From Serendipita indica DSM 11827 (lineage: Eukaryota; Basidiomycota; Agaricomycetes; Sebacinales; Serendipitaceae): a DNA stretch of 64,000 bases. The notes below the pieces were generated by a model. The model saw only the letters and a list, made by a program, of their open reading frames with translations, ran no database searches and was not told the origin of the DNA. Numbering within the stretch: position 1 is the stretch's first letter; every line of letters starts with the position of its first letter. Made by a program: the position numbers and the translations under genes. Below are positions 790-52,775 of the stretch, piece by piece. Location of the stretch: NCBI GenBank assembly GCA_910890315.1, contig CAJVGD010000042.1, forward strand, positions 2,294,001 through 2,358,000. The letters run 5' to 3'.

Positions 790-3720
790 TGTCATGTACA
801 CGAGATTGAGAGTTGCGCCTTACAGACCCTGGCCCTGTTTCGGAAGTTGAAGATGTTTGGATATACTCGAGTCGGTACGCAAATCGGGAGTACCTCCAGC
901 TGGCTGTCCGCGACTTGGACTTGGACTTGGCTTGCGACTTCCCAACGCACTGGCAATACTTTGGGAACTAGCCTGTCGCGTGGGATCCCTAGGCGTCGGA
1001 TTGCTCTTGACCGTGTTGATGAAGTTGATTGCGGGGTTGAACCATATCCTTGGCAGTTCTCCAGTCCCATTCTTTTTCTGCTCGAGGGCAGATTTCCACA
1101 CGGCTTTCTCCTTATCCCATGGGACAAAGTCGTTGACTTCATTCTTGGGTAAATCAGGAGGCTCCAGGACAGACTTCAGTGCACCTAGCGCCGTTTCACA
1201 CTGCGCTTCACGGTTGCGTCTTATTACGGTCACAAACAAGGAGGCAGTCGGAGAATCCGATAATAAACTTGCTAATGTTTTCCATCATCGCGTTGCGATC
1301 CTGGTTCTTGTCTTGGATACTCGCTAGGCTCTTCTCGCAATGAGCGCACCCCTGGTCGTCACGTTGCTGCTCGGACAAGTGATCGATACGACCAAGTGCG
1401 GAGTACGCTATAACGACGTTTTTGGTATCGCTCTCCTTTACTTGGCCAGTTGGGTTGGGATCACTATACTTTGCTAGAGCAGTCGGCAGTTCTCTCGGGT
1501 CAAAGTTGTCCTTGGTGAGCCGTCCTTTGAGAGCATAACGCTGATCTGAGCACCCTTCAATGGAAAGGAACCATCGCAGGAACTCGCAAAGTAATACTGC
1601 CCTTTTGCGGCGGGTCTCGTCGACTGTTTTCTCACCAGATGCCGGCTGGAGAATGCAACCCTTTGCAAGGAAAATATATACCTCTGTAATAATTTCCTTT
1701 TCGAGGATGATATGGGGGTGTTTGCGCTCCAGTGTAACGAGATTCGGAAGATGCTCGAAACACAAGTCGAGGATCACCCTCTCGGTCGACTTATCCGCTC
1801 GCTTTATCAAAGACGCGATGATATCGAGGTCAAGATCGACCCGCTTGCGCACGAGATCGATCTCCTTTGTCGCTTCCTTGGGAGAATGTCCAAGGTCATT
1901 CTCTAGGCCTGCGTCCGAATTGCTCTCTTTGCCTTCCTCCTTATCTTCCTCGACATTACTCGCCTTGCCATGCTGGGGATGAGAGTGGACATGTATCTTG
2001 TATCCAATCCAGGCGACCCAGCGTCCAACCCAGGAGACAATCCACGAAACCCCCTTCGACAGCGGCGATTGGAAGGGAGCCTCTGGTTGGAAAAGGGGGA
2101 TGAGGCTGGTGACGAAGAAAATGAGAGTCCCAATCCCAGAGACTACGAGTGCGACAATTCCAGCCGCTGGAGCAGTCGCGAATAAAAGTTGAAGGATTCC
2201 GATGGCAGAGATGAATAGGGCGAGATGCATGCAGATCGAGAGGAAGGCGACAAATCCCGATAACTTCCACTTCTTGGCCCCTTTGTATCTGTAGTGGCGG
2301 ATACGTGCACGAAGTTGTGTAGAGGACACAGCTTTGAGGTTGCGTTGATAGCTTCGTGTCCATTGTCTGACGAGGATGCCCAGAAGTGCCACGAAGATGC
2401 TAATAAAGAGACCGGCGAACAGGAAGCAGTTGACACTGGTTATGTATGCCGGTATCTTGAACTGATCCTGACTTGTACTTCCAGGTTGGCGAGTCTCCTG
2501 CAGGATGGCGAGCAAGATATCCCCCTGGTCTGGCTGCAGCTTGGAATACGTGATTTGAATGAACGCAGAGAGCACTGCTGAGAAGAGACCGGCCTAGGCG
2601 GTGGTCAATAAAAGGCGCGGGGGACTAATTGCCAGCACTCACAAATACAAGGAGCACATCTACCGTATTATTCGCGTCCTCTACCAGGTCGTCGTCATAA
2701 TTATGCCCTTTCTGCATGTAGACACTCCAAACTGTCGGTTGAGCTGGGGAGCCTTCAGCATCGATGTTGCTCAAACCCCAACCGGGTGGCAATGCCGTAA
2801 AGCCATTGAGCGTCACACTTCCTAATGCTATAGCTCTTTATCAATAACGCTGCCAGCAGTATGGTCCGAGGTGCATACCATTCTCCTGGTCATAGCGAAC
2901 GCCGTAGTTTCCTGACATTCGTGAGGGATTGAGACCAGAAGCACGAGATAAGGCGAGAAGAACGCGATACTAAGGTTGTGGGCGGAGTCAAGTTGTTAAC
3001 CAGCCGTTAACTCAGCATCCTCGCGAGTTTGGTGCGGCCTTGCCCGCTTTCCCGGGATATTGGTTCTATCAGTCCTTTCTCGGATTTGGTTGTCTATTCC
3101 ACGTGTCTTGTATGAATTCAAGTCGCTAAAGTGGCGCCAACATATTGACCTACGCGTTTGATCTCGAAATATCCAGTTTCCCGGGATTAGACTGTGTCAA
3201 AATCAATTTGACGCGTGATTGAGCTCCTGCACGTAACCCGTCTCTACTCGTTGTCAATACAGCTAAAATATATTCAACTTTGCAATGGCCTCCTATACGA
3301 CGTACTTCTCCTTAAACACAACCCTATGGAACACCCTACTGGGACTAGAGCCATCACCATTGACGATGATACTCTCCTTGGTGGGCGGCATTCTCGTACT
3401 GGTACCGAGCGTTCATTGCAGCATCTTGATCGAGAGAGGGCCGCAAATTCGCACCCAATGGATTCTAATTCGAACTCTTCTCGCAATACTGGCCTCGATA
3501 TTCTTCATTGACCTCCTCTTCGCGCCATACGGAGAGCAAAGCCGCTACTTCAGAGCATCTGGAGTTACCAATGGAATTTACGGGTTGCTCAAGACGTGGG
3601 AAATTTGCTTCTCCTCGCTCATCGATGGCGTACCTCTACCATTATGGGTCAGACTATCCCATCCAGCGTCAAATAGTGCGCACCCTAAAAGCAGCAAGGA
3701 AGAAGAGGCCGGGGAAACTA
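790..3720. repeat. Tandem segmental duplication, left copy
   Basis: Bases of roughly 790-3720 and 4420-7350 are homologous in the same order and orientation: DUF6535 gene on minus, about 360 bp of shared upstream sequence, then the start of a wax-synthase-like gene on plus. The offset is 3640 at the DUF6535 exon 3 start and 3632 at the wax-synthase start. Similarity is high in coding, intronic and intergenic sequence, so the event is fairly recent. The left copy loses homology about 430 bp into the wax-synthase gene. Confidence 0.85.
820..2918 (-). pseudogene. DUF6535-type membrane protein, left tandem copy, frameshifted near the C-terminus
   Basis: Three exons fit the splice signals: 2918-2879 (start MSGNYGVRYD), 2821-2643 and 2593 onward. 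Exon 2 carries the family block TVWSVYMQKGHNYDDDLVED. Exon 3 opens with AGLFSAVLSAFIQITYSKLQ and supplies four hydrophobic helices, for example around VNCFLFAGLFISIFVALLG and SGFVAFLSICMHLALFISA. The soluble C-terminal half has no known function. Compared with the right copy, two bases are missing near 1212, so the frame ends at TQP (about 1208) and the last 125 or so codons continue in another frame down to 820. It could still express a C-terminally shortened protein. DUF6535 proteins are known as large basidiomycete families of membrane proteins without an assigned activity. Confidence 0.75.
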
Positions 3721-16019: not shown

Positions 16020-16268
16020 CCGAATTAATGAGATTATATATCCTTGACCACGCGTATTACAGCGACGCGTCCTGGAGCGCAAGTCGACGCAGAGTCCAAG
16101 CGTGTTGAGTGTCTTTTTGACCCGACCACACCCATCCTCAACTAAAGGCTACTTATATACAGTATATTCAACAGATAAAAAGTATTGAACGTGTGTTTAT
16201 TTCAATCTGCTCTCTCACAATGCGCCGCTCAACATGGATTTTGTGGTTCAGACGACGAAGAGAAGAGA
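16020..16268. promoter_or_regulatory. Divergent promoter with two ACGCGT (MCB-type) hexamers
   Basis: The 249 bp between the nucleoporin start (minus) and the dehydratase start (plus) must hold both promoters. ACGCGT occurs at 16051-16056 and again at 16066-16071, fifteen bases apart. ACGCGT is the MluI cell-cycle box bound by MBF in fungi. Function here is inference. The sequence just upstream of the plus gene contains TATATACAGTATATTC near 16153. Confidence 0.45.
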
Positions 16269-17625
16269 ATGCCGCGCAAATCAACTCGCCACGAACATTC
16301 TCCATCTGAAGATCTCGTTTCCAACTATGACGAACAGCCGGGCGTCGTAGAACGCGTCGAGGCAACTGCAGCCGTCGCACGCGACAAAGGCAAGTTGTCG
16401 CCTTTGACACGTCGTATATATAGGCTAATTTCTTATTTAATCACCCTGTTAAATCTTCTGCCCACCCCGGATATGATGATTTCATATCCAGTCGACGGCG
16501 TCATCGCGCAAACGGGGAACATTGCGAGAAAGTATCTCCCGAGCGCGCTATTCGACCGCAAGCCACATGAATACTATCTAATGGCATACAACTCACTCAA
16601 TTTCATCCTCTGGTCATACCTCCTCGTCCTTGTCTCCGCTCACCTCCTCGAACCAACTCCGCCCGCTACAGTTCTCAACCCGACGCCTGGTCCTACAAAT
16701 ACGGCCGGTACAGCTAGCCAGACGCTGGGAGCCTACCTGAAGAACCTATTCACGCCGTTCTCACACATCAAGACGACACCCACGGGCTTTTCGACTGTTA
16801 CCTCGACCAAGGCAAATGCCCTGCAAAAGGGGACAAATTACCTCACCTCGCTCCTCCATGCATTTGTAGAGCGTAGCAGGACGACCTACAGCGCACGCGG
16901 AATCGGCGTATATACCTTTATTATACAGTCCCTCGCTCTCCTCGAGGTGGTGCACTCCGCTTTGGGACTCGTAAAAAGTCCTGTCCAGACAACCGCCATG
17001 CAAGTCGCGAGCCGTCTCGCCGTCGTCTGGTGGTTCGTCGAAGGCCAGCCCACTGCGCGGATCACCCCATTCTACACGACGATGCTCATCGCGTGGTCGC
17101 TCTCGGAGATGATTCGTACAACGTATTACACTGCGTCGCTCTTCAATGTTGTCCCTCCCCGTCCGACGACAAACCCCTACGTAGCAAAGGCAGTCGATAT
17201 CCTCACCAATATCCGGTACTCTGCATTCTACGTTCTCTATCCTTTGGGATCTGGTAGCGAGTACATGTGCATGCTCAAGGGCTTCCCGTCGTTCCCGAGC
17301 AAGGCTGCTGCGTTGACGAGCAAAGAGGGCTGGAAGGCCATCATCTCTCGCAACCCACCTGCGTGGCGCGTCCTCTTTGAGCGCGTCAAGCTTTGGATCT
17401 ACAACTGGGATGCCGCCGCTTGGACGCGTGTGCCATTCGTCTTCATCTGGCCAGCTGGTGAGTACAATGAGTCCCCTTATAGAAAGCATGCTCATACTAT
17501 CAAAAGGTTTGTACATTCTCATGAGCTATATGCATGTTCAGCGCCGAAAGGCACTTGGACGTGGACCAGGACGTAGCATCAACGGCGGTCGTCTTCGCGA
17601 TGTTGGTGGAAAGAAACGGGTCTGA
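16269..17625 (+). CDS. PHS1: Very-long-chain 3-hydroxyacyl-CoA dehydratase (PHS1/HACD family)
   Basis: Two exons, 16269-17457 and 17507-17625, join in frame to 435 aa. The blocks YLMAYNSLNFILWSYLLVLV, then ALLEVVHSALGLVKSP, then QVASRLAVVWWFV, then AWSLSEMIRTTYY and FYVLYPLGSGSEYMCM follow the HACD/PTPLA order, and exon 2 supplies the typical final helix GLYILMSYMHVQRRKAL. The enzyme performs the third step of very-long-chain fatty acid elongation in the ER membrane. An N-terminal extension of about 100 residues and an insertion of about 90 residues after the second helix (16660-16860) make it longer than yeast Phs1. The Lys/Arg-rich tail could be an ER retention signal. ATG 16269 is the first in-frame ATG; the ORF is open upstream only from a non-ATG codon. 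Confidence 0.9.
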
Positions 17626-24224: not shown

Positions 24225-24703
24225 ATGCATCTCTCGTCATTCTCAGCTGTGGTCGTCGTACTAGTATCGACAAACCTTGCCCTCTCCGCACCACTTCCAG
24301 ACCCGCATCCAAGCCCTGCTCCAGTGCCCTCGCCGATTTGGCACTTGATCAAAGTTTACTTTCAAAATCCAAATCCAGCTCTCCTCCATCACACAATCAT
24401 GCTCCGTACCATCATCAAGACCATGGAGCGCCGCCGCACCAAAGCTATGGACCACTGCACCACATGGACCACGAACGACAGCATCACCACTCAGATTTTG
24501 GTCATACAGGCCATCACGATCCTTATGCTCCCTCCAACCCTCACGGCTCGTATAGTCATGAACAATCTCACTGGCAACATGACGAAGAACACCGGTTCAG
24601 CGGCACCCATTCAAGTGGGTACTCGCCGCATGACCACGCTTCATCTCGCCGCATGACCACGCTTCATACCATGGTGGCGGAGGTGGAGGTTATTACAAGC
24701 TGA
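24225..24703 (+). pseudogene. Secreted His-rich protein gene with a frame discontinuity
   Basis: The ATG at 24225 opens a clear signal peptide (MHLSSFSAVVVVLVSTNLAL), then a run of X-Pro dipeptides (APLPDPHPSPAPVPSP). After about 24345 the same frame turns into unlikely sequence, whereas the neighbouring frame, ending at 24703, becomes strongly protein-like and His-rich (HNHAPYHHQDHGAPPHQSYG, then GHTGHHDPYAPSNPHGSYSH). No canonical intron of normal length restores the frame between 24340 and 24390, so the gene is probably frameshifted or contains a sequencing indel. Composition resembles the His-rich precursor at 36338. The function is unknown; metal binding is a guess from composition. Confidence 0.5.
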
Positions 24704-24836
24704 GGCGTACGCTCATCGACGAGCTGGATTAGACCTCGCATGTAGCTTCGTTATGCAAGTCGTTCATTCTTAGTTATTAGAGAGACTGATGGAACACAAC
24801 TTTGATTATTTGAGACGAGCTAGCGGGCTAGGTTGT

Positions 24837-33813: not shown

Positions 33814-35410
33814 TTAACTAGCATATCCGTAGCCACCATAGGCCTGCGAATGTCCCTGTCCATAGGGCGTCTGCGCGCCTTGGCTATAGCCCGTGTACGG
33901 ATCATAGTTTTGTGGCCACTGATTGCCCAACCCATTCACTTGCGCATTCGACCCGCTCCCACTCGCACCTGCTGCGCCATATCCGGCACCACGACCCGCT
34001 TGCCCAGGCCCATAGGTGCTCTCGCGCGTCGCGTCGACAAAGCCAGTGCCCGCAAACGGATCATTGCCGAATCCAGACCCAAAGCTCGTGTGATCGCCGG
34101 CACGCTTGGGCGGTGCGAGACCGCCGTTCGAGCCAGAACCAGACGCGGCCGTATATGCGTTTGATCCAGAAGACGAGGCGTATGCATTCGAGTACGCGTT
34201 GTAATCGTATCCTTGTGCATCATAGCCTTGTTGTGCACCATAGCCTTGTTGAGCGCCATAGCCTTGGTGAGAAGCATAAGCTGCCGTGGGTGGAGCCGCC
34301 GGGACAATATCATATGCCGAGTCGCGGGGCCGTTCATAGTTTGTGACAGGCGGCATGGCGAGAAGCTCATCCGGCTCCATCTCGCGCTCGGCACTCTTGC
34401 CGGGCGACGAATGGTTCGACCGCTGACGGGCGAGTTGGCTCGGGAGGGCTTGCGTCTGGGTCCGCGAGCGGGTGAGACCGCCGTGCGTCTGCTCGTCGGC
34501 GAGAGACATGGCAACTGGCGGTGGCGACATGGGCATGCCTGCAACGGGAGGACGAGAAAAGTCTTTCATCGAGGCCTCGTCCCACATGTCCTCCTCGCCC
34601 ATCTTTCCACGGTTATTCTTCCTCTTGATCCAGAATGCGATAAAGATCAGGGCACCAACGACCACAATGACGGCAACGGTCACCGTGGCCGCGACGGCTC
34701 CCTTGTTCGAGGTAAAGCTAGGCTTGTCAGGAGTCTCGGTTTGGTCCGCATTCGACGCAGTACTGCGGGATGTCGTGATTGTGGTCGTCTGACGAACGCT
34801 CGCAAATGTCTGCGATTGGGTATTCCGGATTACAGTGCGGGTATCGGAACTGGAGGATGAAGCAGTGCTTCGTGATGAAGAGGAACTGCTGGAAGAAGAG
34901 CTGGAAGACGTAGAAGAGGTCGAGGTTCTGAACAAGGAACAGGTGAGGAGTGTGTGAATGGCAGTGCGTAAATACTCACGACGTGGTCGAATCTTCCGGA
35001 GGGGGTTGGGGTGCTTGCGTAGAGGTCGTCGTTGTCGAAGTTGAAGTAGGCGTCGGAGTCTGCTCTGGGGTTCTAGACGACGTGGATTCCGACGAGGTAG
35101 ATGTCGAGGACTCGGATTCCCTGTTGTTGCGTCCGCGCCCGCGCCGACAATTTCCCAGTATCATGTTATGAAAGCACAGAAAGTGGAATAATCAGCGCCA
35201 TTACATTTTGCATATTAGATCGAATACGTACGAGTCACCAATGATGATAGGAATGGGCGGTCCCTGGGGCTCACGCTTTGCAAGAGCAGAGTCGAGAGCC
35301 CGCTCAAACGCAGGAGCGTGTCGTTTGCGAATGTCATTTGTGTGTGCTTGGGCCGTGAGCGCGGCAGAGGCGACAAGAAGAGAAACGGAGAGGGTGGTGA
35401 GCGTCTTCAT
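33814..35410 (-). CDS. Single-pass surface protein with Ser/Thr-rich ectodomain (Mid2/WSC-like)
   Basis: Exons 35410-35232, 35120-34980 and 34927-33814 join in frame to 477 aa. A signal peptide (MKTLTTLSVSLLVASAALTA) precedes a short region with two Lys-Arg sites (DIRKR and LAKR, the latter followed by EPQGPP). Next comes a Ser/Thr-rich, probably O-mannosylated stalk, with a run of 18 or so serines and tracts of TSTSTTTTSTQ type. Then comes one membrane helix (VAATVTVAVIVVVGALIFIA) with a basic stop-transfer (WIKRKNNRGK), and a long cytoplasmic tail rich in Gly, Tyr, Gln and Asn (repeats of the GYGAQQ type). This layout is that of fungal cell-wall stress sensors and of SKG6/AXL2-like proteins; no WSC cysteine domain is visible, so the specific role is open. 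Confidence 0.75.
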
Positions 35411-36337
35411 TGTCGGAGTCAATGTAGAAATGCTATTCGAGTGGAATAGACGTTTTAAACAAGTTTAGAGAGCGAGAAAAGAGTGTGGATGCGTGTAGCG
35501 TTGGTGCCGGGTGGGGCGAGTTAATGGATAAGAGGTGAACGGGTTGTAGGCCGTCTACGCTATCGAAAACAGTCTACAGATGCTGCTCGGCGTCGACGAG
35601 GGCAGCGTAGAGGACGGGAGCTGGCGGTTGTCAAGCGGCCGTCGGCTTGGGAAAGGTCCAAGATTGCTTTACGCCGACGGGCCGTGGGAGCCACAACATC
35701 ACGTCCTGGAAATTCCTCGAGGTCATTCCTCTAAATAACATTGCAATCTAAAAGTCAGTCTTTCGAACTCGAGCGCCCATCTGTGGAGGCGACGGACCTA
35801 TACTCCCATAATATCCGTAGAACAGTGCAATCGACCCGGATGTTGCACTCGTCATTGCCTGCTTTGAGCCCAGTTCCAGGCCCTTTTCGAGCATTATCAG
35901 ATCTCTTCCCATTCTCGCAACCTCTGCATGAGAGGCGCTCTTGACATTGGCTGCTCCCAGGGCGCTTCAATTATCTCTACCACAGCCGAAAATCATCGAA
36001 GTCGCTCTACTATGCGGCACTGCCAGGCCCCTTGGCTCGGGTTGGCCCCTCATATTGAAGGGGCGATGCCTCCCCTTCCAACTCGCGCAGCAACAGAAGT
36101 TGGTAGCTGAGAGCAGAAGCGCGCCAATAATCAATGATAGCGATACATTGCTCGCTATAAAACCCCCTTAGATGGCCCTCTTCGTTCACCCAGGCCGGTC
36201 CCTCCTTTTTGACGACAACTTTACTTCGTTCTTCGCTTGTACGTCCCCTTTCACCTCGTCCTCGCGTCTAACTAACAATTCCTCCTAGTTTTTTCTTCTT
36301 TCTTTTATTTGCTTTTCTTTCCAACGAAGAACCCAAG
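35411..36337. promoter_or_regulatory. Upstream region of the His-rich repeat precursor: TATA box and 5' UTR intron
   Basis: A TATA box (TATAAAA, 36156-36162) lies 176 bp before the ATG at 36338. A 5' UTR intron fits 36239-36288 (GTACGT donor, CTAAC branch-like sequence, CTCCTAG acceptor). A strong TATA box with a 5' UTR intron is typical of highly expressed secreted-protein genes. The left half of the interval is the shared upstream region with the divergent surface-protein gene. Confidence 0.55.
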
Positions 36338-37342
36338 ATGCAGATCGTCAATCTCTCTCTCCTCGTCCTCGCGATTCGTCTCGCGTCCGCTGCTCCCATT
36401 CCAGCACCAAACCCAAGTGGACACCTCGTTAAATCTCTTGCACATGGTGCAGCTGCCGTAGCGGATTCCGGTTCCGTCACGGACGGTATTGCCGCAGCAG
36501 TCTCTCATCATCACCACCACTCAAACCCGCATTATGAACACTCACATACACAATCTGAAACCCGCCGTAGCATCGAGCGTCGGGGACCCAAGGGCAAAGG
36601 CAAGGGCGGTGGAGGCGTCAACCTCAATGTAAATGTCGACGCGAGTGTAATCCACCATCATGACAAGCGCTCGCCAGAGCCAGAGCCGCATCATGTTCAC
36701 TTCCATGCTGGAGGTCAAGAACAGCAGAAACGATCATTGAGCACACGATCCCCGACTCACCCTCACTCTCAACACCAGCATCATCCTCACTCACACCACA
36801 TGCATGCTTCTCACTCCGTTGACGAGAGTCAGTCCGGGGGTGGAGATGCAAGCCAAGGAGACGTCCGCAAGCGCTCACCAGAGCCAGAGCCGCATCATGT
36901 TCACTTCCATGCTGGAGGTCAAGAACAGCAGAAACGTTCATTGAGCGCACGATCCCCGACTCACCCTCACTCTCAACACCAGCATCATCCTCACCCACAC
37001 CACATGCACGCTTCTCACTCCGTTGACGAGAGTCAGTCTGGAGGTGGAGATTCAAGCCAAGGAGACGTCCGCAAGCGCTCACCAGAGCCAGAGCCGCATC
37101 ACATTCACTTCCACGCTGGAGGTCAAGAACAGCAGAAACGATCATTGAGCGCACGATCCCCGACTCACCCTCACTCTCAACACCAGCATCATCCTCACCC
37201 ACACCACATGCACGCTTCTCACTCCGTCGACGAGAGTCAGTCCGGGGGTGGAGATGCAAGCCAAGGAGACGTCCGCAAGCGCTCACCAGAGCCAGAGCCG
37301 CATCATATTCACTTCCACGCTGGAGGTCAAGAACAGCAGTAG
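36338..37342 (+). CDS. Secreted His-rich repeat precursor with Kex2-type sites
   Basis: A single-exon ORF of 334 aa. A signal peptide (MQIVNLSLLVLAIRLASA) is followed by four X-Pro dipeptides (APIPAPNP). After a leader come three 68-residue repeats and a partial fourth. Each repeat is KR, a 19-mer (SPEPEPHHVHFHAGGQEQQ or its Ile variant), KR, then a 45-mer starting SLSARSPTHPHSQHQHHPH and ending SQGDVR. Lys-Arg pairs flank every segment, as in Kex2-processed precursors such as yeast alpha-factor and fungal KEP/RiPP precursors. The 19-mer begins with three X-Pro pairs (SP-EP-EP), suitable for dipeptidyl aminopeptidase trimming to a His-rich core (HHVHFHAGGQEQQ). No Cys is present. The products are predicted to be secreted; their function is unknown. 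A TAG ends the ORF right after the fourth 19-mer. Confidence 0.85.
   Translation: MQIVNLSLLVLAIRLASAAPIPAPNPSGHLVKSLAHGAAAVADSGSVTDGIAAAVSHHHHHSNPHYEHSHTQSETRRSIERRGPKGKGKGGGGVNLNVNVDASVIHHHDKRSPEPEPHHVHFHAGGQEQQKRSLSTRSPTHPHSQHQHHPHSHHMHASHSVDESQSGGGDASQGDVRKRSPEPEPHHVHFHAGGQEQQKRSLSARSPTHPHSQHQHHPHPHHMHASHSVDESQSGGGDSSQGDVRKRSPEPEPHHIHFHAGGQEQQKRSLSARSPTHPHSQHQHHPHPHHMHASHSVDESQSGGGDASQGDVRKRSPEPEPHHIHFHAGGQEQQ
36665..37342 (+). repeat. 204-bp in-frame tandem repeat
   Basis: Units begin at the AAG of the Lys-Arg pair at 36665, 36869, 37073 and 37277, exactly 204 bp apart; the last is partial (66 bp). Units differ by only a few bases (for example Val/Ile, Thr/Ala, Ser/Pro and Ala/Ser changes), so they arose recently or are kept alike by recombination. 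Confidence 0.95.
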
Positions 37343-38587
37343 AGGAAACGCTCTCTAGTTCCTGAGCCACCATCCGCGTCTCGTTCACGCAGTGCAGTGC
37401 AACAGTCATAGATATCTACATGATGAATGTGAAAGTTTGCATGCCCTATTGACGTATGACTCTTATGAGATCCTACTGAAATCGGCGAGGTATACCCATA
37501 TTTCATCTGACATGAACTCGATTGTCCGACTTATTATACATTTAGAGGTTTGACCTTGGGTCGAAGCAACGAGAACAATGAATATGCATACCGGAGAATA
37601 TGGGTGCCCCTTGAAATACATCACGCGTATCCATAGTTCAGGTTACCGCCAGAATGATTGAGGATATTCACCCAAAATTTCTATGGTTATGGTGTAATTA
37701 TAGCGGTCTTTATCCAGTCATGTTTGGGATACGCACTGCATGAGCCATACAGAACATACTAGCTACCACCTTCGGCTCTCACTTGCTCAAATGATTCCTC
37801 ATTACTCAACACAGTGTAAGGATTGGTTCACCTTATAGGTCCGAACCCGGCCGGCCAGGTTGGATTACCTGAGTAACGGGGGTACATAGGAAGTGTAACG
37901 CATTAGAGGGAAAAGAGGGACGCTATAGTCTAGTTGTCTAAGGCTAAGTCGGTGCGAATCCGGCTTGTTCCATTTTCCCACCGCTAAACGTTACACACAG
38001 CCCATCAGCATGCCAGAGGCGAGATGGCTCCGACGGGAGGGTGAGGAACGCGAGGGTGCGACTCCAAATGTCATGGTTAGGATTGGAAGCGTGGCAATGC
38101 TACACCAGATGTCATGAGTGGGCATGATTGAAAGCGTAATATTCCCACACCGGAGAGCCTCTAGGGTATCACCAAAGAGTCTTAGGCCGGCTAAATACAC
38201 CCACCTAGTCACGAGATAGGATCCTATACTAGGACGTTGTGATCAGATAGCAATGAATCACATATACGGTGACCGCTTGCTGATGATATGACAAACCCTT
38301 ATTTCAGGTTCATGATGCCATAGTACGAATCATCTTCGCCGGTCGCGGACAGGCTATGTGGCTTGGCGCGCCGCGCTCGGGGTCTGGCGGTGCAACTTGT
38401 ATTGCCAGCGGCCTAAGGCTGACGGTGAAGGATTCTTACTCACACAGACCCGATTTTCCATGCTAGTTGAGAAGACACTATATAATCCTTGTTGCTGACG
38501 CACTACAAACCTCATTCTTCTCAAAACTCATTTCTTTCGATTTCGTGAGGTTATTCATTTCGCCTCCTGGATTCAAACTGATACTTG
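37343..38587. other. Intergenic region with a tRNA-like promoter motif and a TATA box
   Basis: No supported protein gene. Near 37924-37961 a TATAGTCTAGTTGTC segment and a GGTGCGAATCC segment resemble RNA polymerase III A and B boxes, but no tRNA cloverleaf forms, so this is at most a tRNA-derived relic. TATATAAT at 38479-38486 lies about 100 bp before the second precursor's start codon and is its likely TATA box. Confidence 0.4.
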
Positions 38588-39250
38588 ATGCGCAGAATGA
38601 TGCAGGTCATCAGTTTCATTATAATTTTCGCAACATTTGCGGGCAGCTCCCTCGCAGCACCTATGCCTCGCGGTGGTGGAGGACATGGCTCTTACATCCA
38701 CTCGCGAGATCTATCCAATCCATCTCTCGAACGTCGCGAGCCCGGTCCAAGAGGCGGAGGTGGTGCACACGGCTCGTATATCCACTCGCGAGATCTGGCA
38801 GAGGGGTCCCTCGAGCGTCGCGAACCCAATCCAAGAGGAGGCGGCGGTGGACATGGCTCGTATATCCACACGCGAGATCTGGTAGAGGGATTGAAGCTTG
38901 AGCGTCGGGAACCCGAACCGAGAGGAGGTGGTGGTGGTGCACACGGCTCGTACATCCGCGCGCGAGATTTGACAGAGAGGCCACTCGAACGCCGCGAACC
39001 CAGTCCAAGAGGTGGTGGTGGCGGTGGACATGGCTCGTATATCCACTCGCGAGATTTGGCAGAAGGGTCCCTCGAGCGCCGCGAACCCAATCCAAGAGGA
39101 GGAGGCGGTGGACATGGCTCGTATATCCGTTCGCGAGATTTGGCTGAAGGGTTGATGCTTGAGCGTCGGGAACCCAATCCAAGAGGAGGAGGTGGAGGTG
39201 GACATGGCTCGTACTTTCACACACGGGATCTCCCAATAGAGAGTATTTAG
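38588..39250 (+). CDS. Secreted Gly/His/Tyr repeat precursor with dibasic sites
   Basis: A single-exon ORF of 220 aa. A signal peptide (VISFIIIFATFAGSSLA) is followed by seven tandem units of 26-29 aa. Six units end in LERR. The general unit is EPNPRGGGGGHGSYIHSRDL followed by AEGSLERR. HGSY is invariant and followed by Ile or Phe, and RDL is invariant, while spacer residues vary. Arg-Arg is a Kex2-type site. Units 2-7 begin with two X-Pro dipeptides (EPGP, EPNP, EPEP, EPSP), and the first unit, right after the predicted signal cleavage, begins APMP, so all seven would trim to an Arg-Gly-Gly start. This fits a multi-copy peptide pheromone- or RiPP-like precursor. No family is recognised. It neighbours the His-rich precursor, same strand. 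Confidence 0.85.
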   Translation: MRRMMQVISFIIIFATFAGSSLAAPMPRGGGGHGSYIHSRDLSNPSLERREPGPRGGGGAHGSYIHSRDLAEGSLERREPNPRGGGGGHGSYIHTRDLVEGLKLERREPEPRGGGGGAHGSYIRARDLTERPLERREPSPRGGGGGGHGSYIHSRDLAEGSLERREPNPRGGGGGHGSYIRSRDLAEGLMLERREPNPRGGGGGGHGSYFHTRDLPIESI

Positions 39251-43855: not shown

Positions 43856-44152
43856 ATGCAAATCACCAAGATTCTACTCACAGCAAGCGCATTCGCCATC
43901 GCATCCTCTTTGGCTATACCCGTCGCCCAGCCAAACGCTCTCAACAAAGGGGCAGCAGGCCACGAAGATGGAAAGCATCCTTCGACCGTGACCTGGGTGG
44001 CCGCTACGAATCCAAACGCACCGACATCTCACGAGCACAACTCGGTAGAAGGAATGTCCATCGTCAAGAGAAATCCAAGTTTCTTTGGCAATCGCTTCCG
44101 AGCGGCTTTTCGTCGCCTGTTGTGTGGAAGTGGTGACTTTATGTGGTGTTAG
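43856..44152 (+). CDS. Small secreted protein with a cationic C-terminal peptide behind a Kex2-type site
   Basis: A 98-aa ORF. A signal peptide (MQITKILLTASAFAIASSLA) is followed by a His- and Asn-containing leader and, at residues 71-72, a Lys-Arg pair (MSIVKR). The last 26 residues would be released. They begin NP (an X-Pro pair), are rich in Arg and Phe (FGNRFRAAFRRLL) and end with two Cys (CGSGDFMWC) that could close a nine-residue disulfide loop. This looks like a processed cationic peptide, antimicrobial or signalling, but no family is recognised. A 5' UTR intron precedes the start. Confidence 0.7.
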   Translation: MQITKILLTASAFAIASSLAIPVAQPNALNKGAAGHEDGKHPSTVTWVAATNPNAPTSHEHNSVEGMSIVKRNPSFFGNRFRAAFRRLLCGSGDFMWC

Positions 44153-47383: not shown

Positions 47384-50048
47384 TTAGATATCATCATCGG
47401 AAGGCTGGAGATAATGAATGTAAGTGCTGTTAAGGGGATCGTTGGAAGACCGAAGGGGAACGTCAGGAGACGAATTTAAAGCCCTATAAACGCTGGAAAG
47501 TTGCGTCGTCATCGAGGCGTCGAGGGCAGTCGAGTAGTCTTTGGGAACTTTTCCTGGTTCCTCTTCTGAAGACGACGTAGAAAAGGGAGCAAGCGGTATC
47601 GAGTGCATTGTGGGCGCAATGACAACATCCCGCGTGGCTTTGTGACTCCAAGTAACAGAGTCTTTTTCTGCTACCATTGCCGCAGTTGGTTGCTGGAAAG
47701 GATTGGCCGAGGCGTCTTGTATCACCCTGGCCCGATGTCCAGCAATAGCCCCCGTATTATAGGACGCGGCAGTTGTATAAGATGGCGGGCGGGGTTGTTG
47801 GGAAGACTTGGCCTCGATGGCCTCTGCCCTTGGAGAGGAGATGGTTGGTAGGGGTTCCGCATGGGCAGACACCTGATTGACAGACCGATAGCGGTCGCTA
47901 AGTTGGTTGTTTGTTGCTTGGGGTTGGGTAGTGGGTGGCGGTAGTTTGTGTTTAGTTGAGGTAGATAGCCGGCCAGAGTTATTTTCGTTCGGGCGAGTCA
48001 CCGGAATAATAGCCTCCCGAGCGGTAGGAGCGGGAGTTTCGGGGGTCTCTGAGGAGTTAATTGAGCGAACAAAACCCAAGAGGGGTCTAAACCATATCTC
48101 TTTTGCCCCTTCACTGGCTCGAGTGCTCCGTGTCTCCAGAATTCTCAATAGTATATGTATCTCGTCTTGAGAAGGTCTGTAAAATGTACTATACAGCCAC
48201 TGTTTGATGAGCAGCACTATTTCTTCAGATTCAATTTCGAATGCGCATCCGGTTAGTTCACGCATGCAATCACCGCGCATTGAGAGAAGCGCCACAATTG
48301 CCTGAAATAATGCAAGAGTATGTGGCTGTTTGGGTTCGCTTGTACAAGGGACTTCAGGAACCTTAGTTACTGCCCCTCTGAGATCTTCCAGTCTCCGCGA
48401 ACAGGGCCCACAGTGAGTCGTGAAGCTTGTAGTGTCATCATTGTCGATTGGAATGTGCTCGAGGAGACCAATGGCGCTATACGCAGTGCATACTGCTGTA
48501 ATGAGACTTTCTTTGGTTGCGACATGCTCGGGAGTTGGTTTAAGGCTTGATAGAGCACTCAAGGCGTGCCGGCCATGTTCGCGAACCAGATTCATCCATG
48601 GCGTTATTAAAGCTGGATCCTGAGCCTTTGAACGGAACGCTCCGGAATCCAGCCAGAGGAACCATACAATAAACTGGGCCAGCGTCTGCGCACGCTCGAA
48701 ACGTGTGGGCACCAGTGCATTGTCGCCTTTGTTCGGTGCAGCTTGCACACAGGTCTTGGTGAGGAAGACACTTGTGCCAAGAATAACAGGGTGCGAGAGA
48801 ATCCCACTAGTCTTGACGTTCTCCGACACCCATGTAAGGGAGGGGATTTTCTTGAAGCAACGGTCGAGAAGCCAGCGCTCGGTTGTCTTATCGGCTTGAA
48901 GCATGTTATGAATAATGATCTCGAGGTCGAGTTCAGCACGTGACTTGACATATTCTTTGATAGCGTTGCCGCGCTCTCCCGAGTTGTCCGTATTTGGGGT
49001 GAGTAGCAGTGGTAAGAGGTTGTATTTCCTCTTTTGCCGCTTTACCGGCATATTGCGCAAGATTCCAAGTAGAGCTCCCAAAACTCGAGAGAGGGGAGAC
49101 CGAAAAGGGGCGTCGGGGTGTTGAATAGCTTGCAAGGTACGCCATAGAACTATACCTATGCCTAAGGTGAACGATATAACGGGAATATATCCAACATGAG
49201 GACAAGTAGAGAAGATGAGGTCGAAAATGCCAATCATAGCAAGAAAGACGGCAAGAAGCATGATGACAGAGAGCCAGTCGAGGAAGGCAATGAAATCGTA
49301 TCGCTTCATACCCCGATGGAGAACAAAACGGGCACGAGCTTCATGATGAGGTGATGAGTATTGAGTGGCGATCTCACGTTGATAGTTGCGTGCCCACTGA
49401 TTTATAAAGATGCAGAGTACCGCGACAACCAGAGCGACGCTCAGAGCCCCGAATAGAAAAGCGTTGACACGAATACCGTACACTGGCGGCTTTTGGATTG
49501 TAATGCTTGGCTGTCCACCTTGACTCAAAACTTGAAGGATAGCCACGAGGGTGTCGTTTGGGTCTGCCGACAATTTTGGGAAAGCAATAGCAATAAATGC
49601 CGCGACAGCGGCCGAGAATAGACCCGCCTGAATAAAGGTAGGTTACCTATATCCGGCGATGTGAGAACTTACAAATGTCAGGAGAATCCCCGCAGTCTCG
49701 TTTGCTTCCGTAAGGATGTCCGCGTCAGTTTTGGCTGCATGTTCATTGTAATAATCCCAGACACTAATCGAATCTTGGTTATTACCATAATGGTCGTTTT
49801 GATCCTTGATACTCTCCAGCGGTTCCTCGCTAAAGCTCATCTCGTAGCGAGGAGCGCGGACGTATATGAGGGACCTTTCTTTTCGAGGAGGAGGAGGCCC
49901 CGAGCAGGCTGGGTAGGTGTCGTCGTACCAGGTTGGACCCAGGGGTTGGACCCAACGCTCTACGCCTAGTCCTTTGAGAGGCCAACTCGTAGCTCACAAG
50001 AAAAAAGGGCATACCTCCAGGCGTATCAGTATCCACTACATAGGCCAT
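47384..50048 (-). CDS. DUF6535-type membrane protein, array member 1 (intact)
   Basis: Exons 50048-50015, 49965-49673 and 49627-47384 join in frame to 856 aa. The start is MAYVVDTDTPG; exon 2 carries WDYYNEHAAKTDADILTEAN, the family block before the first helix; exon 3 opens AGLFSAAVAAFIAIAFPKL and contains four hydrophobic helices (for example FLFGALSVALVVAVLCIFIN and LSVIMLLAVFLAMIGIFDL). A long soluble region follows, then a Pro/Ser/Thr-rich tail absent from the copies at the left end. No function is known for the family. It is the only member in the window with a complete frame and a long tail. Confidence 0.8.
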
Positions 50049-50711: not shown

Positions 50712-52775
50712 TCATGACCCTATGGGAGAGGTGGTCATGATAGTCAACGATTGCACAACGTTAACCAGCAGTGCAAACCACAATCTATGTTCCGTCTCAC
50801 CAACCTTCATCTTGCGTTCTTTCAGAATCTTCAGCAAGATCCTCTTCTCTTCCTCAGAGACTGTGTAAAAGGCCTCTGAGGTGGTGATTGCCTCCGATGC
50901 AAACCTTTTCGTCACAAGAGACGCGATTTCACCGGGCTCGTTGTCCAGCCACGATCCATACGGCCCTACTATGCAGTCGCAGCGCATAGTAAGGAACCCC
51001 AGGAGCGCTGCAAATAAGATCTGTTTATTTTTGGCCTCTTCTAAATCATTTAAATCCTCTTTTTTCGAACTGTCAATGTCCCGTTGCACGGCCTGCCTTA
51101 GATTGGTCAATCCAGATTCGCAGACTGAGCAAGGGTTTAGCGAATGTGCATTAAATTGAAACCGATGCGCAAGGAGACCAAGGGCAGTATAGGCCGTACA
51201 TACTGCCTTGATGAGCCGCTCCACATCGACGGAGTTGTCAGAAGGGCGCCCTTTCATCCCTAGCGTGCTGAGTGCGTACCAGCTGTATGCGTGCAACATA
51301 TCCATCCATGGCGTGACCAAATCCTCATCGCATAATTTCGTTCGCAGCTCAGCAGAGGCCAGCGGGAGAAGCCAAACGAGAAACTCGCTCAAGGTTTCCG
51401 CACGTTGAAAGCGACCAGGCACCAACGTCTTGGACTCTGATCCCGGCGATTCCGATGTCTTTTTTATGCAGGTCTTTGCGAGGAAGATGCTCCTCTTGAG
51501 GATGGATGGGTACAAGAGCATCTCGTTTTGTTGAAAATTGCATGTGAGCCACTCGAGTGAAGGAAGCTTTTTGAAGCAAAGGTCGAGGAGCCAACGCTCA
51601 GTTGCAGTGTCAGCTTGATGCATGATTTGACTGATGATGTCCAGGTCGAGCTGATCGTACGACTTGACATACTGCTTTATACTTGTGTGATCCTCATCAA
51701 TTGCTTCATCGTATACTCCAGATGTCTGTAAGGCTCGTGAGTGTGTACTCGCTCTGTTTATTAGCGTAGAGTGACGTTTTTTGAGTACATGTCCTTTATT
51801 TCGTCGGTTTACTGGTATTGGGCTGATCGTCTTGAGTATCCGTGTTAGCACGTGAGATAAGGGAGACCGAAAGGGAGCATCAGGATGGAGATAGGCTTGA
51901 ATAGTTTTCCACAAGACAAAGGCCATGCATAGGGCAAATGATATGACCGGAATGTACCCGATGCGAGGGCATGTGGAGAAGATGAGGTCAGAGATGCCAA
52001 CCATGGCAAGGAGGACAGCCAGAAGCATCAAGAGAGAAAGCCAGTCTACGATGCCTATGAAGTCATACCACTCAATCCCACTATGCAGGAAATAGTGCGC
52101 GCGAGCTCGATGATGTGGGGAAGAGAAGGCAGATACGATCTCGCGTTGATAGTTGGATGCCCATTGGTTAACCAAGATGCAGAGTACGGCCACACCCAGG
52201 GCGATACTAATGGCGCCAAAGAGAAAAATGTTTACGCGGATACCAAATGCGGGTGGTGGTTGAATCCTTGAGCTTGGACTTTCACCATTATTCAAGGATT
52301 CGAAGATTCCGAGTAGAATTTCGTTCGGATCTGGCGATAGCTTGGAGAAGGTGATGGGGATGAAGGCTGCGACGGCAGCTGAGAACAGACCAGCCTAATC
52401 GAATAAGCATAATATCACATTGTGGTTGAATGGCTTACAAAAGTGAGCAGAACCTGTGCAGTATCATTCGCATCCTTGATCGTGTCTGCGTCCATCCTTG
52501 CCGCGTTCGCGTTATAGTAGTCCCAGATGGTAATGATTTCTTCATCGTCTCCAATCAAATCTTGATGCGTTTCTGGTGTGAAAAAATGTGGAAGTGGCGC
52601 CGCACGAGATGGAATTGACGGCAAAGCACGCACAACCAGAGGTGCACTCACTGGGGCCGGCGTTGGGCCCGGCCCTCGTTCCATGCGCACCCAACGCTCC
52701 ACTGTTATTCTATTATCAGCCGAACGAAGCTGATAGGAGATGCATACCGCCGTGTCCCTCCGCTATAAAGGGCAT
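50712..52775 (-). CDS. DUF6535-type membrane protein, array member 2 (intact)
   Basis: Exons 52775-52748, 52701-52439 and 52394-50712 join in frame to 657 aa. The start MPFIAEGHG is followed by VERWVRMERGPGPTPAP, matching the MERW/VERW block of the neighbours. Exon 2 ends DAND-TAQVLLTF and exon 3 begins AGLFSAAVAAFIPITFSKL. Helices include FLFGAISIALGVAVLCILVN and LSLLMLLAVLLAMVGISDL. It lacks the Pro/Ser/Thr-rich tail of array member 1. Function unknown. The reading frame is complete, so it is probably expressed. Confidence 0.8.

What the first reader, a model, noticed from the sequence alone, without database searches (positions are those of the whole stretch)
36338..39250. Two adjacent multi-copy peptide precursors with Kex2 sites followed by X-Pro trimming dipeptides
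Both ORFs have a signal peptide and tandem repeats bounded by KR or RR. Most segments after a dibasic site begin with X-Pro pairs: SP-EP-EP before the His core in the first gene, EP-xP in the six units of the second that follow a dibasic site, plus AP-MP after signal cleavage in both. This is the alpha-factor type maturation grammar: Kex2, then a Ste13-like dipeptidyl aminopeptidase that removes X-Pro/X-Ala. Two unrelated peptide families made side by side with the same grammar suggest a dedicated secreted peptide locus. That they are functional is inference.
Basis: partly seen in the sequence, partly recalled or inferred. Interest (0 to 1): 0.85.

Follow-up and report, generated by a model that had tools for sequence, protein, structure and literature searches.

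The report
Two neighbouring fungal multi-peptide precursor genes
A root-dwelling fungus carries, side by side, two different genes that each look like a string of secreted peptides to be cut apart and trimmed by enzymes like those that mature yeast mating factor; the kind of gene is already known in mushrooms and their relatives, and what this pair does remains to be tested.

Summary
The window is from Serendipita (Piriformospora) indica. Gene 1 (36338-37342, +) and gene 2 (38588-39250, +; start probably 38597) each encode a signal-like N-terminus and tandem units bounded by KR/RR. X-Pro runs follow the dibasic site in 4 of 9 segments of gene 1 (SP-EP-EP) and 6 of 6 of gene 2 (EP-xP). In 304 kb around them no other unspliced open frame is built like this. 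Among the seven units of gene 2 the Pro columns and E-R-R differ only synonymously, while the X between the prolines changes freely. The genome has two kexins and a DPP4-like enzyme. 'Kex2, then X-Pro trimming' is well supported as architecture; transcripts, peptides and function are not shown. The kind is known: Kex2-processed repeat proteins (KEPs) with STE13 signatures, reported in Basidiomycota in 2019 and 2022 (PMC6339444, PMC9769878). No relative of either gene was found. Particular here: the adjacent pair, the histidine-rich core, the selection pattern.

The parts
36239..36288 (+). probable 5'UTR intron of gene 1 (50 nt, GTACGT...CTAAC...CTAG)
   Evidence: read from sequence; inference, no transcript data
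36338..37342 (+). gene 1: histidine-rich Kex2-processed repeat precursor, 334 aa, 59 His
   Evidence: one match in the genome; pN/pS among three full repeat units 0.14 on few changes
36338..36391 (+). signal-peptide-like N-terminus of gene 1
   Evidence: crude rule; SignalP not available
36392..36415 (+). AP-IP-AP-NP run after the predicted signal cleavage
   Evidence: sequence
36671..36727 (+). gene 1 copy 1: SPEPEP + HHVHFHAGGQEQQ
36734..36865 (+). gene 1 44-residue His-rich peptide, copy 1 (starts SLST, no X-Pro start)
36875..36931 (+). gene 1 copy 2: SPEPEP + HHVHFHAGGQEQQ
36938..37069 (+). gene 1 44-residue His-rich peptide, copy 2
37079..37135 (+). gene 1 copy 3: SPEPEP + HHIHFHAGGQEQQ
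37142..37273 (+). gene 1 44-residue His-rich peptide, copy 3
37283..37339 (+). gene 1 copy 4: SPEPEP + HHIHFHAGGQEQQ; the stop follows at the end of the mature peptide
38545..38595 (+). probable 5'UTR intron of gene 2 (51 nt, GTGAGG...CTGAT...GCAG); if spliced, translation starts at ATG 38597
   Evidence: read from sequence; inference
38588..39250 (+). gene 2: glycine-rich Kex2-processed repeat precursor, 220 aa as listed, 7 units
   Evidence: one match in the genome; pN/pS among units 0.33
38657..38737 (+). gene 2 unit 1: AP-MP + RGGGGHGSYIHSRDLSNPSLE + RR, freed at its front by signal cleavage instead of Kex2
38738..38821 (+). gene 2 unit 2: EP-GP + core + RR
38822..38908 (+). gene 2 unit 3: EP-NP + core + RR
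38909..38995 (+). gene 2 unit 4: EP-EP + core + RR
38996..39082 (+). gene 2 unit 5: EP-SP + core + RR
39083..39169 (+). gene 2 unit 6: EP-NP + core + RR
39170..39247 (+). gene 2 unit 7: EP-NP + core, diverged end, no RR

Best explanation
Two KEX2-processed repeat proteins (KEPs) of Serendipita indica, each found once in the genome and probably specific to its lineage. Each precursor enters the secretory pathway. A kexin cuts after KR/RR, a Kex1-type carboxypeptidase removes the basic residues, and a DPP4/Ste13-type membrane enzyme takes off the leading X-Pro pairs. Gene 1 would release four copies of HH(V/I)HFHAGGQEQQ, with a free N-terminal His-His, and three 44-residue His-rich peptides. Gene 2 would release seven 21-23-residue peptides of the type RGGGG(G)HGSYIHSRDL.... 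The products are most likely linear. Shown here: architecture, constraint on the grammar of gene 2, presence of kexins, a DPP4-like enzyme and S10 carboxypeptidases. Inferred: secretion, cutting, trimming. Guess at function: gene 1 peptides bind metal ions (Zn/Cu/Ni) outside the cell, about 0.4; gene 2 peptides act as signal or interaction peptides, about 0.35.
For: Repeat arrays and dibasic sites. The only two such unspliced ORFs in 304 kb, and adjacent. Seven units of gene 2: pN/pS 0.33 overall, 0.00 at both Pro columns (17.0 synonymous and 0 non-synonymous pairwise differences), 0.00 at E-R-R, 0.16 in the core, 0.68 in the spacer, 0.78 at the X columns; the two other + frames give 1.30 and 2.44. 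Unit 1 keeps both prolines although it lies behind a signal-like sequence and not behind RR. Enzymes: two kexin paralogs on contig C1, both with S8 and P-domain matches, one of the two compared with the PDB (best match kexin 1ot5, E 1.6e-83); one DPP4-like gene with DPPIV_N and S9 pieces and, by eye, a hydrophobic segment near its N-terminus (best PDB match DPP4, E 5.9e-18); S10 carboxypeptidases. No UstYa match. Literature (passages and named sections): KEPs with STE13 signatures occur in Basidiomycota (PMC6339444); in PMC9769878 a C. cinerea KEP expressed in Pichia gave peptides with the XA/XP motif removed, and Pleurotus peptides were found that are consistent with the same step.
Against: No transcript, peptide or knockout data. 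4 of 9 segments of gene 1 have no X-Pro start. No relative in any other species was found, so no cross-species conservation. The number of independent changes at the Pro columns is small (about three, my count). One reverse-strand frame also gives a low ratio (0.38), as expected where third positions coincide, so the ratio alone does not fix the strand. No genome-wide enrichment of the single motif. Kex1 itself was not singled out among S10 carboxypeptidases. Signal peptides rest on a crude rule. The metal-binding reading rests on composition only.
Confidence: 0.8

Rival explanations
1. Rep1-like role: the fragments are cut by kexin but stay on the hyphal surface as structural, water-repellent or adhesive peptides.
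For: Predicted repeat peptides of 13-44 residues bounded by Kex2 sites; Ustilago Rep1 peptides of 35-53 residues form amyloid-like fibrils (PMC4617103, passages).
Against: Rep1 is reported to lack the STE13 signature (PMC6339444); these peptides are His/Gly-rich and look polar by eye, not amphipathic.
Confidence: 0.1
2. The proteins act uncut: gene 1 as a His-rich metal-binding secreted protein like the DELD proteins, gene 2 as a Gly-rich wall protein; dibasic sites are incidental.
For: S. indica encodes a family of predicted secreted His/Ala-rich small proteins (DELD, PMC3192844, passages); one S. indica effector, Dld1, is listed with metal ion homeostasis (PMC9610748, table passage).
Against: E-R-R and the Pro columns of gene 2 vary only synonymously while neighbouring columns vary freely; gene 1 lacks the RSIDELD end.
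Confidence: 0.07
3. Dikaritin-type precursor (ustiloxin class): the conserved Tyr in gene 2 units is cyclised by UstYa-type oxidases.
For: Tyr in 7 of 7 gene 2 units; P450 pieces at 28-32 kb.
Against: No UstYa/DUF3328 match in the whole genome (its control genomes were silent too, so weaker than it looks); PMC6339444 says STE13 is not predicted to process such precursors.
Confidence: 0.02
4. Tandem-repeat DNA with chance open frames, or decayed genes.
For: Long open frames exist on the other strand over the same repeats (261 and 243 aa), one reverse frame of gene 2 has a low ratio (0.38); gene 1's frame continues for 22 codons beyond the TAG; no match among S. indica proteins in the protein database.
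Against: Low pN/pS in the + frame against more than 1 in the other + frames; signal-like sequence, 5'UTR intron signals and TATA-like boxes in place.
Confidence: 0.03

Closest known systems
KEX2-processed repeat proteins (KEPs) with STE13 signature in Basidiomycota (PMC6339444; C. cinerea and Pleurotus examples in PMC9769878)
   Same: Signal sequence, tandem units, KR/RR, X-Pro/X-Ala pairs right after the dibasic site, X often acidic, cores without known function
   Different: Core sequences; two dissimilar precursors 1.25 kb apart; His-rich core; two alternating peptide types in gene 1 (77 of 1193 KEPs are reported to have two motif types)
Ascomycete alpha-pheromone precursors (MF-alpha1 type)
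   Same: Order of cuts; the last copy ends at the stop without a dibasic site (for yeast this is recalled)
   Different: Core unrelated by eye; no Ste2 receptor match in this genome while Ste3 is found
Dikaritin RiPP precursors (ustiloxin, phomopsin class)
   Same: Kex2 repeats, Tyr in gene 2 core
   Different: X-Pro pairs; no UstYa found
DELD proteins of S. indica (PMC3192844)
   Same: Secreted, His-rich; a DELD-like gene lies 11.6 kb away in the window
   Different: No RSIDELD end; Kex2 repeats; not Ala-rich in the repeats

Membership tests
KEP (definition of PMC6339444, section 24 read) | N-terminal signal peptide | tested here: inconclusive
   crude hydrophobicity and small-x-small rule met by both; SignalP not available
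KEP (definition of PMC6339444, section 24 read) | no transmembrane segment besides the signal | not tested
   TMHMM not run; no second hydrophobic stretch seen by eye
KEP (definition of PMC6339444, section 24 read) | at least four KR/RR fragments, at least three similar | tested here: met
   gene 1: largest group of similar fragments 4; gene 2: 7; the original pipeline (Fimo) was not run
KEP (definition of PMC6339444, section 24 read) | motif size times repeat number at least 15% of the protein | tested here: met
   from fragment lengths: gene 1 shorter motif 19 x 4 / 334 = 23%; gene 2 26 x 7 / 220 = 83%
KEP with STE13 signature | XA/XP pairs directly after the dibasic site | tested here: met
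   gene 2: 6 of 6; gene 1: all 4 copies of one of two peptide types, 4 of 9 segments overall
KEP with STE13 signature | peptides released and trimmed | not testable with these tools
   needs peptidomics
alpha-type mating pheromone | cognate Ste2-type receptor in the genome | tested here: not met
   PF02116: no match in the own genome, control genomes silent; PF02076 (Ste3) gives 17 exon matches in the same genome by the same method
dikaritin RiPP | UstYa (DUF3328) enzyme encoded nearby | tested here: not met
   PF11807: 0 matches in the whole genome (control genomes silent)
DELD | C-terminal RSIDELD | tested here: not met
   gene 1 ends GGQEQQ, gene 2 ends PIESI

The most novel reading that the evidence does not exclude
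A paired locus in a root endophyte in which X-Pro trimming unmasks a metal-binding end: the SP-EP-EP cap of gene 1 is removed during secretion to expose the N-terminal His-His of HHVHFH, so the fungus exports multi-copy metal-chelating peptides whose activity is switched on by the Ste13-type step, beside a second precursor of signal peptides made by the same enzymes.
Probability: 0.1. Interest if true: 0.7.

Novelty: new member of a known kind. Interest (0 to 1): 0.42.

Why it matters
[quoted passage not shown] what these peptides do is left open in PMC6339444 and PMC9769878. Here is an adjacent pair in an endophyte, with predicted masses and a unit-level selection pattern, so the trimming can be tested directly by peptidomics. 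The histidine-rich core adds metal binding as a concrete function to test. It also suggests that such genes can be missing from the deposited protein set of a sequenced fungus.

Tried and rejected
Homologs: full-length searches of both proteins against 5.8 billion proteins gave none at E 0.1 or better. The database does hold S. indica and other Serendipita proteins, and an identical protein should have shared the most words, so the two genes are apparently not among the deposited S. indica proteins at similar length (inference). Distant relatives could have been missed, because poly-Gly and His-rich words can fill the capped candidate list (7986 and 7991 candidates scored).

Genome-wide motif enrichment: none. 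Only the first places are listed there, up to C5:1484628; among the listed ones I saw no run of three within 1 kb; the rest of the genome was not seen place by place. Similarity between the two precursors: none. Other copies in the genome: none reported (the tool calls its counts lower bounds). Pfam: no family for gene 2; for gene 1 only a match to Zf-Nsp1alpha over a His-rich stretch, E 1.6e-05 but 24.8 bits against a cut-off of 27, taken as composition. A bacterial promoter scan near gene 1 is not informative for a fungus. Literature: two searches joining the species with Kex2 and one joining histidine-rich with KEX2 and copper listed 8 papers, none on these genes by title and abstract; I opened one of the 8 (PMC4617103, passages). 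The supplementary KEP tables of PMC6339444 and PMC7329392 could not be looked up, so these genes may be listed there. P. indica genome and secretome papers were seen in passages only.
Full report
What is there. Two open frames on the + strand, 1.25 kb apart. Gene 1 (36338-37342) codes for 334 residues, 59 of them histidine; its repeat is 204 nt with 96% matches. Gene 2 (38588-39250) codes for 220 residues with seven units of 26-29 residues. A splice-like pair, GTGAGG at 38545 and GCAG ending at 38595, would remove the first ATG of gene 2 and put the start at 38597 (MMQVISF...). Gene 1 has a similar 50-nt intron at 36239-36288. Both have a TATA-like box upstream (tataaaa at 36156, tatataa at 38479; read by eye). 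These are readings of sequence; there are no transcript data.

Organism. One primer of the P. indica TEF pair, present in 5 papers that also name that species, matches the window's genome exactly at one place. The partner, recalled, matches exactly on the other strand within the 3020-base locus around it; one paper prints it with an extra G. The ORF at 16179-17573 is 99% identical over 86% of its length to PIIN_10030 of Serendipita indica DSM 11827. The held genome has 24.7 Mb and the window 50.5% GC, against 24.98 Mb and 50.68% published for the genome (PMC3192844, passages). The window is C40:2294001-2358000 of a contig of 2398954 bases, so the pair is 66-69 kb from a contig end.

The grammar. 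After KR/RR, 4 of 9 segments of gene 1 begin SP-EP-EP; 1 begins GP; 3 begin SLS and 1 SIE. In gene 2, 6 of 6 begin EP-xP. After the signal-like sequence gene 1 has AP-IP-AP-NP and gene 2 AP-MP. Such a start is not general: 4 of 66 ORFs with a crude signal peptide in 304 kb have [A/S]P-x-P at residues 13-34, namely the two genes, a DELD-like gene and a frame at -4991 that resembles the DUF6535 genes. A single (K/R)R-(E/D)P-xP motif is no more frequent genome-wide than its reversed control (362 against 415). A repeated one is rare: among 3186 open stretches of 50 aa or more in 304 kb, only these two have three or more dibasic sites followed by X-[P/A]-X-[P/A], and of the 66 ORFs only these two have three or more similar Kex2 fragments. 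The scans read unspliced frames, and the signal rule misses some likely secreted proteins. By composition alone, the chance of xPxP at a given site is about 0.0075 in gene 1 and 0.0060 in gene 2; copies of one unit are not independent, so each family counts about once.

Selection. Comparing the seven units of gene 2 codon by codon, pN/pS is 0.33 overall. It is 0.00 at the two Pro columns and at E-R-R, 0.16 in the core, 0.68 in the spacer and 0.78 at the X columns. The other two + frames give 1.30 and 2.44; the three reverse frames give 1.40, 0.38 and 1.45. The second X is M, G, N, E, S, N, N while the prolines around it never change. That is what an enzyme reading only the Pro would allow. Limits: few independent changes, possible gene conversion between units, one species. 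Gene 1 units differ too little for more than a consistent result (8 non-synonymous and 16 synonymous pairwise differences, ratio 0.14; reverse frame 1 gives 0.27).

Ends. The stop of gene 1 sits exactly at the mature end of the fourth HH(V/I)HFHAGGQEQQ, and the frame goes on beyond it with RKRSLVPEPP... for 22 codons. This may be a shortened array whose last copy needs no carboxypeptidase; as recalled, yeast alpha-factor's last copy also ends at the stop. The last unit of gene 2 has a changed end and no RR.

Machinery. Two kexin paralogs lie on contig C1 about 20 kb apart (one of the two was compared with the PDB). One DPP4-like gene lies on C2, with a hydrophobic segment near its N-terminus (by eye) and DPPIV_N and S9 pieces. 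S10 carboxypeptidases are present (17 exon matches); Kex1 was not singled out. UstYa: no match; Ste2: no match. Neither has a positive among the control genomes, but Ste3 gives 17 exon matches in this genome by the same method, which makes the Ste2 result more credible.

Relatives. None at E 0.1 or better for either protein, although the database holds S. indica, S. vermifera and other Serendipita proteins. Each gene has one match in the genome, and the two precursors are not detectably similar. I read this as fast-changing, lineage-specific genes, probably missing from the deposited annotation. Distant relatives may have been missed because simple-sequence words can fill the candidate list.

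Surroundings. P450 pieces at 28.3-29.3 and 31.2-31.9 kb; a divergent S/T-rich membrane protein at 33.8-35.4 kb with a sub-threshold Psg1 match (16.6 bits, cut-off 30.1) and its own KR|HAPA and KR|EP sites; DUF6535, MBOAT, PTPLA and RRP12 genes further out. No peptidase, receptor or UstYa was recognised among the 20 window ORFs scanned (the two genes among them; other ORFs were not scanned). Thus 'locus' here means two genes.

What is known. KEPs were defined by PMC6339444 in 2019 (passages and sections 9 and 24): 1193 KEPs in 226 species, with clear STE13 signatures in some Basidiomycota, taken there as candidate hormones or effectors. PMC7329392 (2020, passages) counted 7878 KEPs. PMC9769878 (2022, passages) detected KEP peptides in mushrooms and found the XA/XP motif removed after expression in Pichia; knockouts of six KEPs in C. 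cinerea had no apparent phenotype. PMC3708536 (passages) found internal repeats in 110 P. indica small secreted proteins without Pfam domains and no evidence of gene clustering. At a mean of about five KEPs per species, two neighbours by chance would be unlikely (inference), so the pairing may matter, but the finding was picked for being a pair.

Verdict. Membership: KEP with STE13 signature, on the features tested here; a formal signal-peptide and membrane-segment prediction is missing. Not an alpha pheromone, dikaritin or DELD protein on the features tested. Function is open; gene 1's histidines make metal binding the first thing to test.

Noticed in passing
window 24225-24732 (+): A secreted His-rich frame starting APLPDPHPSPAPVP after its signal-like sequence and, in another frame, an end reading LRRTLIDELD (by eye): looks like a member of the S. 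indica DELD family. A 23-bp tandem duplication at 24622-24667 (2 copies, 100% match) lies between the two frames; described only.
   Followed up: partly
window 43856-44152 (+): Small protein MQITKILLTASAFAIASSLAIPVAQPNALNK... with a signal-like start and one KR followed by NP and then a cationic, two-Cys C-terminal peptide (SFFGNRFRAAFRRLLCGSGDFMWC); a single-copy Kex2 plus X-Pro layout 4.6 kb beyond gene 2; 5'UTR intron signals present.
   Followed up: partly
window 33814-35410 (-): Divergent neighbour: signal-like sequence, KR|HAPAFERALDSALAKR|EPQGPP, S/T-rich stretch, transmembrane-like segment, tail; weak Psg1 match (E 0.007, below cut-off). Dibasic sites followed by X-Ala/X-Pro again.
   Followed up: partly
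window 37340-37411 (+): In-frame continuation RKRSLVPEPPSASRSRSAVQQS beyond the TAG of gene 1.
   Followed up: partly
own genome C1:949500-953500 (L011) and C1:968500-974000 (L010): Two similar-looking kexin genes in opposite orientation about 20 kb apart; apparently a duplicated Kex2.
   Followed up: partly
own genome C36, C1, C13, C40, C43: Ste3-type receptor matches at about seven places on five contigs (17 exon matches).
   Followed up: no
window 1211-2593, 47387-49642, 50715-52394 (-): Three DUF6535 ORFs, with further similar-looking frames in the window, apparently a locally repeated family.
   Followed up: no
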